12,672 nt of DNA, taken from contig JAFTMU010000115.1 in the NCBI GenBank assembly GCA_017452215.1, positions 1 to 12,672 of the forward strand. The letters are read 5' to 3'. Shown one piece after another: positions 424 through 12,161 of this stretch. The notes under the pieces were generated by a model, which ran no database searches, was not told where the DNA came from, and was given only the letters and a program-made list of their open reading frames with translations. The translations under genes were made by a program, and so were the position numbers. The stretch comes from Clostridia bacterium. GTDB lineage: Bacteria; Bacillota; Clostridia; Oscillospirales; CAG-272. Positions within the stretch are counted from its first letter, which is position 1. Every line of letters starts with the position of its first letter.

Positions 424-432
424 ATAGAAAAA

Positions 433-459
433 GTGCGTTCGAGACATTCTCGGACGCAC
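433..459. repeat. Left copy of a duplicated 27-bp terminator stem
   Basis: The arm GTGCGTTCGAGA (433-444), a 3-base loop, and TCTCGGACGCAC (448-459) form a 12-bp stem with one G-T pair. Five A residues (428-432) precede it, but no T-run follows. The sequence recurs at 703-729 with one change in the loop. The two copies abut the two ends of the 460-702 element, so this reads as one half of a target duplication. As it stands this copy lacks the T-run of an intrinsic terminator. Confidence 0.8.
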
Positions 460-702
460 AGACTGTAGACAAAACTATCGACTTTCGTCAGTTCGACGAA
501 AGTTTTCGCCCGCCTTTTTCAAAAGGCGGCGCAGTGGAGGCTGCGTAAGCCTCCTCGCCGTCCGCAGACGGCGAAATCCCTTCTCTTTACGGCGCTTTTC
601 TTTTTGCCAAGCTTTTTCTTTTGCGCCTTTTTGGTCAAAAGAAAAAGCGGTATAAAATAACTTGTGCAAATTGAAAAACTGTGTTCCTTTGGGCTACAAC
701 CT
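460..702. mobile_element. Hairpin-rich element 1 with terminal inverted repeats, MITE-like, no coding capacity
   Basis: The left end AGACTGTAGACAAAA (460-474) is an imperfect inverted repeat of the right end TTTGGGCTACAACCT (688-702), and both ends recur at 4357-4371 and 4576-4590. The interior is nearly all stem-loops: 481-489/495-503, 511-518/521-528, 536-542/548-554, 556-562/567-573, and a 13-bp stem 611-623/636-648. Both sides are flanked by the same 27-bp palindrome. There is no transposase. A 64-residue minus-strand frame (475-669) is very rich in Lys and Arg, simply translates the hairpins, and is not a convincing gene. Seen: shared termini, flanking duplications, stems. Inferred: non-autonomous mobility. 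Confidence 0.6.
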
Positions 703-734
703 GTGCGTTCGAGATATTCTCGGACGCACTTTTT
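703..734 (+). terminator. Right copy of the duplicated stem, with T-run; intrinsic terminator
   Basis: A 12-bp stem (703-714/718-729, loop TAT) is followed directly by five T residues (730-734). It matches 433-459 in 26 of 27 positions. It was probably the terminator of the GH2 gene before element 460-702 separated the two stem copies. It now lies 279 bases beyond that stop codon. The original A-stem-T structure would have worked in both directions. Confidence 0.65.
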
Positions 735-751
735 GTATCGAGCTTTTTCGC

Positions 752-780
752 TTGACAGACCTTTTGTGAGATGGTATAAT
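752..780 (+). promoter_or_regulatory. Consensus sigma-A promoter pointing antisense into the DUF1836 gene
   Basis: TTGACA (752-757), a spacer of exactly 17, and TATAAT (775-780) with a TGG extended -10 (772-774) make one of the two strongest plus-strand promoters in the window. Transcription would start near 787, three bases before the 3' end of the minus-strand DUF1836 gene, and run antisense through it. No plus-strand frame with a ribosome site follows before fakB at 1529. It may make an antisense or long leader RNA; activity is inferred. Confidence 0.6.
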
Positions 781-4284: not shown

Positions 4285-4333
4285 GGTGCATTGTGCGGTT
4301 TCCACGGGGGAGAGAAGGAGAGTGGAAATTGTA

Positions 4334-4356
4334 GGGGCGGTTCACGAACCGCCCGC
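4334..4356. repeat. Left palindrome flanking element 2
   Basis: GGGCGGTT (4335-4342) and AACCGCCC (4347-4354) form an 8-9 bp stem around CACG. The 19 bases GGGGCGGTTCACGAACCGC recur exactly at 4592-4610 on the other side of element 2. The type GGGGCG-ATTC/GTTC-palindrome belongs to a hairpin repeat commonly seen between genes in clostridial genomes; a related copy with GATTC arms lies at 4642-4661. Confidence 0.75.
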
Positions 4357-4373
4357 AGACTGTAGACAAAAGG

Positions 4374-4426
4374 AACAACCCCTCAGTCACCTCACGGTGA
4401 CAGCTCCCCTTACACAGGGGAGCCTA
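4374..4426 (+). repeat. Intergenic hairpin repeat (AACAACCCCTCAGTCA family), copy 1
   Basis: Two stems in order: GTCACC/GGTGAC (4386-4391/4396-4401) and GCTCCCCT/AGGGGAGC (4403-4410/4416-4423). The layout AACAAYCCCTC-stem-CTCCC-ACA-GGGAG-CTA recurs inverted at 4461-4550 and 12454-12502, and direct at 12523-12577. Confidence 0.75.
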
Positions 4427-4460
4427 AAAGTAAAATATCGTTCGAAAGGCTACTTTTTAG

Positions 4461-4550
4461 TCTCCCTTGTGCAGAAGGGAAGGCGCAAGCGCCAGAGTTT
4501 TCCTACGGCAACTCGAAGGTGGCGCACACAGTGCGGCGGAGAGATTGTTT
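4461..4550 (-). repeat. Intergenic hairpin repeat, copy 2 (inverted, with internal additions)
   Basis: Minus-strand member of the same family: stem TCCCTT/AAGGGA (4463-4468/4475-4480), then GGCGC/GCGCC (4482-4486/4489-4493), ending GGCGGAGAGATTGTTTTT near 4534-4551. It is longer than the other copies through extra sequence at about 4494-4530. With copy 1 it can fold into one long hairpin, the CTAAAAGTA near 4424-4432 facing TACTTTTTAG at 4451-4460. Confidence 0.65.
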
Positions 4551-4591
4551 TTGTCATTTTGACGATCACTGTTACTTTGGTCTACAACCTG

Positions 4592-4613
4592 GGGGCGGTT
4601 CACGAACCGCACG
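4592..4613. repeat. Right palindrome flanking element 2
   Basis: It repeats the 19 bases of 4334-4352 immediately after the right end of element 2 (one extra G at 4591). The last bases diverge (ACG here, CCGC on the left), so the duplication is less perfect than around element 1. Confidence 0.7.
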
Positions 4614-4620
4614 TCGTAAG

Positions 4621-4675
4621 GGGTGCGGATTTTTTTAGAACGGGCGATTCGTGAATCGCCCCTACAGGGTGCGGA
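4621..4675. repeat. GGGCGATTC palindrome between 9-bp direct repeats
   Basis: GGGCGATTC (4642-4650) and GAATCGCCC (4653-4661) form a 9-bp stem, the common intergenic hairpin type of these genomes. It sits inside a 37-bp segment (4630-4666) flanked by the direct repeat GGGTGCGGA (4621-4629 and 4667-4675). The repeat could be a target duplication or chance. Confidence 0.5.
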
Positions 4676-9773: not shown

Positions 9774-12161
9774 ATGAATGCTGCGGCTGTAATCCTCTGT
9801 GCCGGAAAAGGCACAAGAATGAACGACAATTCAAAAAACAAGGTTTGTTTTGATTGCGCAGGTACGCCGACCATCAAAAGAATTATCTCTAATATGAAGG
9901 ATGCCGGGATCAAAAGCTTTGTGATCGTTATCGGTCACCAGGCTTACAGCGTTATGGATTGCTTGGATGGAGAAGAGGGCATCGTATATGCTTACCAAAA
10001 AGAGCAGCGAGGCACAGGACACGCTGCCATGTGCGGCTTGAAGGCTTTAAAGGCTTTGGGATATTCCGGTCCTGCGATCATCTCTATGGGAGATAAAATC
10101 ATTTCCGCAGGTGTAATTAAAAGTCTTTTGGAAAAATCGCACGAGGCGAAGGGCGTTTTCGGCGTTCAACCGTTGATGGATAATTTTAACGGCGGACGAG
10201 TTATAACCAGGGGTGAGAAACCGTTTGGCATCGTGGAATTTGCAGATGCAGCGCTTATGGCTCTGGCGGACGTTGATAGCAGCGATTATATGAAAAAGCT
10301 GAAAGAAATAGGGCTTAATCCCAAAAAGGCTGCTAAGGTCTACAGTAAAGCCATGGAAAAAAAGCCGCAGGGGGCGTTGTTTTTGTGCGGGGAGACTTTT
10401 TCGGCAAACGAGATCCTTTACGCTAAGTATGCCAATGCGGGATTATATTGCTTTGACGTTGACAAGGCTGTCGAGGTTATAGGAGGTCTTGGTTCCAATA
10501 ATGCACAGGGCGAGATCTATCTGACCGATGCTCTTGAATGCCTTGCGTCTACGGATGATGCTGTGATTTATGAGATCGCAGATTCAAACGATATGCTTAC
10601 GTATAGCACAAAAACCGAGCTGCGGAAAATCAGCAGATTCTTTTTACGGAACGCTTCCGAATTTATAGGCGATATCGAAAACGGAAAGCTCGATGACTCG
10701 TTTGCCTTGTTGTATAGAGATGATGCAGCTGCGCAAAAAGAAAGATACATTGGACTGCTCAACAGGTTTATAGAAAGGCACGGTGATAAAAAGGTCATTA
10801 TCACTCGCTCTCCCGGACGTGTCAATCTTATGGGGCGTCATATTGACCACAGAGGCGGCGGAATCAACGTTATTGCCACGGATAAGGATACCGTTTTTGT
10901 TTTTGCCCCAAGAGATGATGGTGACGTTATAACGATTTCCAACAGCGACGAGTCGTACAGTGAAAATGAATTTACCGTAAAACAGCTTATGGGGGAGAAA
11001 AAGTACGGTAAGTGGCTTGATTATCTTGCTGATGAAGTAGTTATGAAAAATCTCTCCGAAAGTGCGGGCGATTGGTCCAACTACGTAAAGGCTGCAATCG
11101 CAAGAGCGCAGTTTGAAAGCGATGAGTTGCTTTGTGGTATGGACATGGTTGTTGACGGAACGATTCCGGTGGCGGCAGGACTTTCCTCATCGTCAAGCAT
11201 TGTTGTGGGTGTTATGGAAGCTGTTGTTGCGCTTAACTGCCTGAATATCACGGACAAGGAATTTATAGAGATGTGTGGGGAAGGTGAGTGGTTTGTCGGT
11301 TCTCGGGGAGGAGCGGGCGACCATGCCGCCATGAAATGCGGAAAGCGGGATGCCATTGTGCATCTTTCATTCAAGCCCTTCGCAGTCGGTGATAGCGCAA
11401 GCTTTTCGGACAAATATGCGATCATCGTAGCAAACAGTATGATAAAAGCAAAGAAATCCGAAGGAAGCAAGAACAAGTTTAATGCAAAGGTTGCATCATA
11501 TGAGTTTGCCTTTATGCTTTTGAAACGGGCGAACCCAAAATATCGCCTTGAAGAATTCAGAGATCTTTCTAAAATTCGTCCCTACTCTGAAATTTATAAA
11601 ATGCTGAAGGCGCTTCCCGAAAAGATCACAAGGGAAGAAATCAAAAAACAACTTCCCGAATATATGGAAAGTATTGAAGTTATATTCAGAAATCATGCGG
11701 ATCCCGGTGTTTATCATTTAAGAGACGTTGCGCTTTACGGTATATCCGAGTGCGTCAGATCCGACAGATGTATGGAGATCCTGAATGACGGTAACTATGC
11801 GCTTCTCGGTGAAATGATGAAGATCAGTCACAACGGTGATAGATGCGGTTCGGTTTCCATTTCTGATGAAAAGCTCGAGAAATTAGCGCTTGAAAATGCT
11901 GATATCGCATTTCAATACGGCGCCTACGATTGCTCCACACCGGAAATAGATTATATGTGCGATATGCTTAATGCAGAAGACGGCGTTCTTGGCAGTGAGT
12001 TGGTAGGTGCAGGACTTGGCGGATGTGTTATTGCACTTGTCGAAAAGGAAAAAGCGGATAGGGTCATTGAGAGTCTGAACGTAAAATATTACGACAAATA
12101 CAATTTCTCTCACGCTGCTCAGATTTACACTCCGGCACCCGGCTCCTCTGTGCTGTTTTGA
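9774..12161 (+). CDS. Fused sugar-1-phosphate nucleotidyltransferase and galactokinase-like GHMP kinase
   Basis: A 795-residue two-domain enzyme. The N-terminal part (1-285) is a GlmU-like nucleotidyltransferase: LCAGKGTRM (8-16), Lys23, QKEQRGTGHA (75-84), ISMGDK (103-108), NAGLYCFD (221-228) and GEIYLTD (246-252). The C-terminal part (about 305-795) is a galactokinase-type GHMP kinase: SPGRVNLMGRHIDHRGG (346-362), the phosphate loop GLSSSSS (469-475), GAGDHAA (513-519) with D516 in the place of the catalytic Asp, and VGAGLGGCVIAL (744-755). Together they would convert a free sugar to sugar-1-phosphate and then to NDP-sugar, as Fkp does for fucose with different domain families. The usual galactokinase GEHTDY is GRHIDH, so the sugar is probably not galactose. 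GGAGG at 9757-9761 supports the start. The gene is richer in A+T than its neighbours. Confidence 0.85.
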   Translation: MNAAAVILCAGKGTRMNDNSKNKVCFDCAGTPTIKRIISNMKDAGIKSFVIVIGHQAYSVMDCLDGEEGIVYAYQKEQRGTGHAAMCGLKALKALGYSGPAIISMGDKIISAGVIKSLLEKSHEAKGVFGVQPLMDNFNGGRVITRGEKPFGIVEFADAALMALADVDSSDYMKKLKEIGLNPKKAAKVYSKAMEKKPQGALFLCGETFSANEILYAKYANAGLYCFDVDKAVEVIGGLGSNNAQGEIYLTDALECLASTDDAVIYEIADSNDMLTYSTKTELRKISRFFLRNASEFIGDIENGKLDDSFALLYRDDAAAQKERYIGLLNRFIERHGDKKVIITRSPGRVNLMGRHIDHRGGGINVIATDKDTVFVFAPRDDGDVITISNSDESYSENEFTVKQLMGEKKYGKWLDYLADEVVMKNLSESAGDWSNYVKAAIARAQFESDELLCGMDMVVDGTIPVAAGLSSSSSIVVGVMEAVVALNCLNITDKEFIEMCGEGEWFVGSRGGAGDHAAMKCGKRDAIVHLSFKPFAVGDSASFSDKYAIIVANSMIKAKKSEGSKNKFNAKVASYEFAFMLLKRANPKYRLEEFRDLSKIRPYSEIYKMLKALPEKITREEIKKQLPEYMESIEVIFRNHADPGVYHLRDVALYGISECVRSDRCMEILNDGNYALLGEMMKISHNGDRCGSVSISDEKLEKLALENADIAFQYGAYDCSTPEIDYMCDMLNAEDGVLGSELVGAGLGGCVIALVEKEKADRVIESLNVKYYDKYNFSHAAQIYTPAPGSSVLF

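What the first reader, a model, noticed from the sequence alone, without database searches (positions are those of the whole stretch)
433..734. Small element inserted in a terminator stem with duplication of the entire 27-bp palindrome
Two 27-bp palindromes (26 of 27 identical) abut the two 15-bp inverted-repeat ends of 460-702 with no spare base. Five A residues lie only before the left copy and five T residues only after the right copy. Removing the element plus one copy restores a complete A5-stem-T5 bidirectional terminator. That is strong internal evidence for a target duplication covering exactly the stem. Palindrome-targeting with such a long duplication in a 243-bp non-coding element is unusual, and I do not recognise this element by name.
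Basis: partly seen in the sequence, partly recalled or inferred. Interest (0 to 1): 0.8.

Follow-up and report, generated by a model that had tools for sequence, protein, structure and literature searches.

The report
Hairpin-duplicating mini-transposon of IS1182 type
A short gene-less mobile DNA element of a gut Clostridia genus, with ends like those of IS1182-family transposons, inserts at DNA hairpins such as gene-end terminators and typically leaves a complete copy of the hairpin on both of its sides.

Summary
Window 460-702 is a 243-bp element without a recognised gene, abutting two 27-bp hairpins (26 of 27 identical), A5 outside the left copy, T5 outside the right. It is one of about 17 related copies in its genome, with many more in its genus. 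Its ends match sequence beside IS1182 transposase fragments in congeners. Other copies duplicate other hairpins: 26 of 37 end-paired candidates carry an 18-45-nt direct duplication, 24 of these 26 being significant hairpins; 1 of 1332 cross-pairings scores as high. A sister copy at 4357-4590 lies in a GTAG-type REP hairpin; unoccupied repeats in the same genome have one hairpin, a paralogous empty site. Four IS1182-type ISs in the order have 27-35-nt hairpin duplications. So this is a non-autonomous IS1182-type element whose target duplication is the whole hairpin; the published relative IS1272 replaces its hairpin. No orthologous empty site was available. The interior carries hairpins that change by compensated substitutions with few G-T intermediates and are spread through the order.

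The parts
428..432 (.). A5 tract, only before the left hairpin copy
433..459 (.). left copy of the duplicated target hairpin (12-bp stem, 3-nt loop on +)
460..474 (+). left terminal inverted repeat, IS1182-type
460..702 (+). non-autonomous IS1182-type element (MITE), 243 bp, no recognised gene
499..650 (+). interior core: three covarying hairpins, a fourth long hairpin and a possible cross-pairing; family spread through the order
688..702 (-). right terminal inverted repeat (11 of 15 matches to the left one)
703..729 (.). right copy of the duplicated target hairpin
730..734 (+). T5 tract, only after the right hairpin copy
4334..4352 (.). left copy of the duplicated GTAG-REP hairpin at the sister element (19/19)
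4357..4590 (+). second element of the same terminus type in the window (234 bp, different interior)
4592..4610 (.). right copy of the duplicated GTAG-REP hairpin at the sister element

Best explanation
460-702 is a MITE mobilised in trans by an IS1182-family DDE transposase. Shown: its ends match those beside IS1182 transposase fragments in congeners, related copies lie in many places, and the typical copy is flanked by a direct duplication of one complete hairpin that differs from place to place. Inferred: the transposase recognises an extruded hairpin or cruciform and joins the element ends to the 5' feet of the stem on the two strands. In a cruciform these points are neighbours in space however long the stem is, so gap repair copies the whole hairpin and the duplication length follows the target (18-45 nt here). 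Also inferred, without expression data: because the A and T tracts stay outside, transcripts from either side pass the near hairpin and the element and meet a hairpin with its U tract on the far side, so termination should be largely kept.
For: 26 of 37 end-paired type A candidates have direct duplications of 18-45 nt (15 of 26 perfect) within 5 nt of the ends; 24 of 26 are hairpins at p<=0.01 against mononucleotide shuffles; 8-nt flanks: A 3.9 and T 1.5 before the left copy, T 4.2 and A 1.2 after the right; 1 of 1332 cross-pairings scores as high. Type B: 5 of 8 at the same limit, a sixth (L021) at a lower score, 0 of 56 cross-pairings at that lower score. Paralogous empty sites. The terminus beside IS1182 transposase fragments: L073 and L079 in G012, the genome with most exact termini (19 of 58), and L070/L152 in G021. 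ISs L068, L192, L193, L197 with hairpin duplications 33/35, 30/30, 27/27, 34/34. Hairpin and terminator targeting is published for IS1272 and TnSha1 (passages of PMC5678879 and PMC4923244).
Against: No IS1182 transposase match in the own genome, 79% complete. No orthologous empty site. Eleven of 37 candidates lack a clean duplication: L079 is not an element; L188 here is one pairing within a tandem; L110 has an indel; L114 an inverted hairpin; L116 and L043 diverged; L060 two different hairpins; L002, L100, L128, L129 none or one. Two of 8 type B elements fail (L187, L019). Of seven plausible ISs three have a different hairpin at each end (L067, L190, L194). The IS end in L079 and the degenerate one in L070/L152 abut no hairpin. 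L108 has a 19-nt duplication that is hardly a hairpin. The published relative IS1272 loses the hairpin instead.
Confidence: 0.85

Rival explanations
1. The two hairpins were a pre-existing pair of terminators and the sequence between them is an unrelated spacer that happens to be repeated.
For: No orthologous empty site was found at this locus.
Against: The same ends abut different duplicated hairpins at 26 of 37 candidates, against 1 of 1332 cross-pairings; unoccupied GTAG repeats have one hairpin.
Confidence: 0.04
2. IS1272-like replacement: the element swaps out a hairpin, and flanking hairpins arise later by recombination between copies.
For: IS1272 and TnSha1 replace or partly delete target hairpins (passages of PMC5678879, PMC4923244); some copies have two different hairpins at their ends (L060, L067, L190, L194).
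Against: 26 of 37 candidates have the same hairpin on both sides, 15 perfectly identical, and the A/T tracts lie outside, which replacement does not produce.
Confidence: 0.06
3. A different DDE family moves the element; the shared ends with IS1182 transposase fragments are chance or a hitch-hiking insertion.
For: By eye only about the terminal 15 nt are shared between the element and the IS1182 ends seen; no partner in the own genome.
Against: Two IS1182 C-terminal fragments in G012 and one degenerate N-terminal fragment in G021 carry the terminus close by, and IS1182 ISs elsewhere in the order behave the same way at hairpins.
Confidence: 0.07
4. REP/REPIN-type element moved by a RAYT (tyrosine) transposase.
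For: GTAG-type REP dimers are abundant in the same genome and the interior is hairpin-rich.
Against: The element has terminal inverted repeats and long target duplications, and the one REP dimer seen with it is its target, not its end. RAYT genes were not searched.
Confidence: 0.02

Closest known systems
IS1272 / TnSha1 (IS1182 family, staphylococci; abstract and passages of PMC5678879, passages of PMC4923244)
   Same: IS1182 family; target is a stem-loop, often a transcription terminator, chosen by structure and not by sequence; variable target length
   Different: IS1272 replaces or deletes the stem-loop and makes no target duplication; here the whole stem-loop is duplicated. PMC5678879 draws this outcome as a possible pathway (3b-6b in its Fig 13 legend) without an example in the passages I saw
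ISMac2-associated MITEs of Methanosarcina acetivorans (IS1182 family; table in PMC3852290)
   Same: short multi-copy MITEs (160 and 169 bp) assigned to an IS1182-family partner
   Different: listed direct repeats of 4 and 0 bp; no hairpin targeting in the passages seen
Other IS1182 ISs with short duplications (ISPse1, table passage of PMC3281130, columns as I read them; ISCaa15, table passage of PMC3196728)
   Same: same transposase family, terminal repeats of 16-18 bp
   Different: 4-bp direct repeats
REP / GTAG palindromic repeats (passages of PMC3733652)
   Same: dispersed palindromes, dimers; the sister copy in the window sits in one
   Different: from the passages and recall, REPs have no long target duplications and are tied to RAYT transposases; the paper notes frequent G-T pairing there, which is rare in the interior core here

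Membership tests
IS1182-family MITE | terminal repeats match those beside an IS1182 transposase gene | tested here: met
   L073 and L079 in G012, NF033551 C-terminal matches then AGACTGTAGAC(G/A)AA; AGGTTGTAGACAAA beside a degenerate N-terminal match in L070/L152. All are fragments; no complete IS with exactly these ends was found
IS1182-family MITE | multi-copy, with no transposase gene inside | tested here: met
   21 matches, 17 copies by my grouping, in the own genome; only a 64-aa minus-strand ORF lies fully inside, not family-searched
IS1182-family MITE | mobilised in trans by the IS1182 transposase | not testable with these tools
   needs a transposition or cleavage assay
IS1182-family MITE | autonomous partner in the same genome (usual, not required for a relic) | tested here: not met
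   0 matches to PF13751 and NF033551 in G000, an incomplete genome
IS1272-type stem-loop replacement | target hairpin lost and no target duplication | tested here: not met
   hairpin on both sides in 26 of 37 candidates and in 4 of 7 plausible ISs as the same hairpin
IS1272-type targeting | targets are hairpins without sequence consensus | tested here: met
   24 of 26 duplicated targets are hairpins; 1 of 1332 cross-pairings matches
REP/REPIN | short palindrome with GTAG tag, no TIR, no target duplication | tested here: not met
   element has TIRs and long duplications; RAYT not searched
Rfam RNA families (for the interior) | match at gathering score | tested here: not met
   0 matches; at E up to 5, 13 matches all far below gathering scores

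The most novel reading that the evidence does not exclude
A lineage of IS1182-type transposases reads DNA shape: it joins both ends to the four-way junction of an extruded hairpin, so the target duplication has no fixed length but equals the target hairpin. This keeps a terminator on both sides and lets the element spread through gene ends with little harm. Its MITEs also carry a cluster of DNA hairpins kept as near-perfect palindromes by a DNA-level process (template switching, or selection for single-strand folding), visible as compensated changes with very few G-T intermediates and no strand preference.
Probability: 0.45. Interest if true: 0.7.

Novelty: new variant of a known kind. Interest (0 to 1): 0.55.

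Why it matters
DDE transposons are generally taught to leave a short duplication of fixed length. Here the length varies with the target and equals the whole hairpin, in small MITEs and in four IS1182-type ISs. That is a natural experiment on structure-guided target choice, and it supplies examples of an outcome that the IS1272 authors drew as a possible pathway. It also suggests how an element can live in terminators without destroying them. In the listings of my nine paper searches (open-licence papers only, and only the listed part of longer result sets) I saw no report of whole-hairpin duplication by IS1182 elements or of such MITEs. ISfinder and the subscription reviews could not be checked; from recall, ISfinder lists long direct repeats for some IS1182 members, so parts may be known there.

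Tried and rejected
Orthologous empty site: 20 of 35 genus genomes match DUF1836, 3 of them closely (68-73%); none offers a comparable junction (G024 another gene; G032 and G012 contig ends). Comparing the flanks of fetched loci gave no occupied/empty pair. Interior as a structured RNA: covariation is strong, but G-U pairs are 5 of 1340 cells in 52 sequences, 9 of 1529 when the 7 sequences I had left out are added, and 13 of 1606 in the order-wide set (three helices, alignment fitted to the model); and a crude ORF-based call shows no strand preference relative to neighbouring genes (genes reading in: 11 sense, 8 antisense, among 51 copies, many undecided; 29 and 30 among 59). So I favour a DNA-level cause; this is not proof against an RNA. 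One of five covariation measures (number of further pair types) does not exceed shuffles (444 of 500 at least as high). Interior as coding: not tested beyond ORF listing. Rfam gave nothing at gathering score. PF13751 in the own genome: none. In 20 of 30 IS1182 loci my terminus motif recognised no ends; they are no evidence either way. L202 and L213 (ends GGGCTGTTGACAAAGC and GAGCTGTTGACAAAGT) show neither hairpin nor duplication; L215 I take for a chance pair.

Full report
WHAT IS THERE. The window belongs to an incomplete assembly (G000, 1.76 Mb, 408 contigs, 78.6% complete). Window 433-459 and 703-729 are 27-mers, 26 of 27 identical, each a 12-bp stem with a 3-nt loop on the + strand. Between them lie exactly 243 bases whose outer 15 bases are inverted repeats with 11 of 15 matches. 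A5 is only outside the left hairpin and T5 only outside the right one. The left gene fragment (no Pfam hit) and the DUF1836 gene converge on the site. The scan plus its T tract a terminator on +, and nothing at 433-459 on -, where a G-T pair becomes a C-A mismatch.

IT IS A DISPERSED FAMILY. A DNA search of the own genome gives 21 matches, which I group into 17 copies. The exact terminus AGACTGTAGACAAAA occurs at 58 places in 10 of 60 related genomes, all in one genus; the reversed pattern occurs once. The element as DNA query matches in 28 of 60 genomes (three of the 28, outside the genus, are weak at E 3e-4 to 9e-6). By eye, two terminus types share the interior: type A (AGACTGTAGAC...) and type B (AGCTTGCTGACAAAG...); one copy (L020) has one end of each.

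THE TYPICAL COPY HAS DUPLICATED A HAIRPIN OF ITS OWN. I paired type A ends within 150-600 bp in the loci fetched by then and compared the flanks. Of 37 distinct candidates, 26 have a direct duplication of 18-45 nt lying 0-5 nt from the ends; 15 are perfect. Twenty-four of the 26 fold at least as well as 99% of 200 mononucleotide shuffles; the exceptions are the REP hairpin of the window's sister copy (p 0.115) and L108 (no stem). In the 8 nt before the left copy A averages 3.9 and T 1.5; in the 8 nt after the right copy T averages 4.2 and A 1.2. Of 5000 random left-right flank pairings 3 reach the score; of all 1332 cross-pairings one does, the tandem L188 with itself. The 11 others: L079 is an IS end paired with a chance match; L188 (one pairing within a tandem); L110 (same hairpin with a 1-nt indel); L114 (right hairpin is the reverse complement of the left); L116 and L043 (diverged); L060 (two different hairpins); L002, L100, L128, L129 (none or one). 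These descriptions are by eye. The window's first copy is not in this count (4 mismatches at its right end). For type B, 10 candidate pairs reduce to 8 elements after removing a double pairing and a chance pair inside a gene; with offsets up to 8 nt, 5 of 8 reach the same limit (L007, L020, L022, L023, L024), L021 scores 10, L187 and L019 fail; none of 56 cross-pairings reaches 10.

EMPTY SITES. The orthologous test failed for lack of a comparable junction. A paralogous test succeeded: the sister element at 4357-4590 sits in a repeat beginning GTAGGGGCGGTTCACGAACCGCCC. The pattern has 24 matches in the genome with up to 3 mismatches, counting both members of dimers and three in the window itself. 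I printed 9 loci, some of them the same place. Unoccupied dimers have one such hairpin, and the start-to-start spacing to the inverted partner is 51-53 nt in the five pairs I computed; in the window it is 53 nt from the right copy. Removing the element plus one hairpin gives the unoccupied form. The repeat has the GTAG tag of REP families (PMC3733652, passages).

THE PARTNER. PF13751 and the IS1182 transposase model NF033551 have no match in the own genome. Among 60 relatives NF033551 matches in 9 genomes. In congener G012 two C-terminal fragments lie close to the element's terminus; in L073 a terminator-like palindrome lies right outside it, in L079 none. In G021 a degenerate N-terminal fragment lies next to AGGTTGTAGACAAA (L070/L152), again without a hairpin. 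In the order 25 of 295 genomes have matches at E<=1e-60. I examined 30 loci; my terminus motif found an end pair in 10. Four ISs with full-length ORFs (L068, L192, L193, L197) are flanked by duplicated hairpins of 33/35, 30/30, 27/27 and 34/34 nt (beyond the L197 copy the sequence reads N); three (L067, L190, L194) abut a different hairpin at each end; L202 and L213 have other ends and no hairpin; L215 I take for a chance pair. Different hairpins at the two ends could come from recombination between copies or from misassembly; this is not settled.

HOW IT PROBABLY WORKS. Shown: hairpin targets without common sequence, whole-hairpin duplication, A/T tracts outside. Inferred: the transposase joins the element's 3' ends to the 5' feet of the stem on both strands of an extruded cruciform, where these points are adjacent whatever the stem length; repair copies the stem. 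Wan et al. drew this outcome as a possible pathway next to the replacement they proposed for IS1272 (PMC5678879, abstract and passages). Furi et al. report hairpin and terminator targeting with blunt deletions for IS1272 and TnSha1 (PMC4923244, passages). [quoted passage not shown]). Other IS1182 entries have 4-bp repeats (table passages of PMC3281130 and PMC3196728), and ISMac2 MITEs 4 and 0 (PMC3852290). So this is a variant of a known kind, not a new kind.

THE INTERIOR. Window 499-650 belongs to a family of hairpin clusters. I found 59 distinct genus sequences and aligned 52, leaving out five near-duplicates and two aberrant ones (L108 and the second copy in L182); seven of the 52 were trimmed so that the first hairpin is not counted in them. 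Three hairpins and one cross-pairing have 98.3% of 1340 cells paired, 15 of 27 pairs with changes on both sides and 192 such cells; four of five measures exceed all 500 shuffles, the number of further pair types does not (444 of 500); sliding the partner by 1-3 columns drops pairing to 38-55% (MAFFT alignment, structure read from one sequence). G-U pairs are 5 of 1340 cells; with the seven left-out sequences added, 9 of 1529, with 34 unpaired cells. A covariance model finds the family at E<=1e-8 in 22 of 197 genomes of the order, 15 of 111 genera, in several at the limit of 16 scored candidates. In the order-wide alignment of 71 matches 13 of 1606 cells are G-U (three helices; fitted to the model). 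Strand relative to neighbouring genes is about even by a crude ORF call. Eleven of 59 loci hold two clusters on opposite strands, nine of them convergent and 39-142 bp apart. Compensated change with few G-U intermediates and no strand preference points to a process acting on DNA palindromes rather than a strand-specific RNA; that is inference.

VERDICT. Observation confirmed and interpretation supported. The cruciform-junction mechanism is the weaker step, perhaps 0.55.

Noticed in passing
window 499-650; order-wide loci L218-L276: Interior core is a family of covarying hairpins found in 22 of 197 genomes of the order, with few G-U pairs and no clear strand bias; no Rfam match at gathering score.
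   Followed up: partly
L221, L229, L244-L247, L249, L250, L252 (convergent); L269 (wider), L271 (divergent): The core occurs as an inverted pair, nine times convergent and 39-142 bp apart, as if it formed the ends of a larger palindromic repeat.
   Followed up: no
window 4331-4665: Sister element inserted in a GTAG-type REP dimer; 24 matches to the REP hairpin in the genome including the window's own.
   Followed up: yes
window 752-780, + strand: Perfect sigma-70-type promoter match (TTGACA, 17 nt, TATAAT, with TG) just right of the restored terminator, reading antisense into DUF1836.
   Followed up: no
L114 603-832: The right hairpin is the reverse complement of the left one: a flipped duplicate.
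   Followed up: partly
L188 (G005:C22): Two elements in tandem with three copies of one hairpin, suggesting re-insertion into, or recombination at, the duplicated hairpin.
   Followed up: no
L067, L190, L194 (ISs), L060: IS or element with a different hairpin abutting each end: recombination between copies, misassembly or another insertion mode.
   Followed up: partly
L017 (G000:C407) and L092 (G029:C111): Elements of two species lie near the same conserved stretch (81% over 183 nt) but at different hairpins, which suggests independent insertions.
   Followed up: no
window 9774-12161: 795-aa protein joining a nucleotidyltransferase domain to a galactokinase-like GHMP kinase.
   Followed up: no
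L108 490-733: Element with a 19-nt perfect duplication that is hardly a hairpin: a possible non-hairpin target.
   Followed up: no
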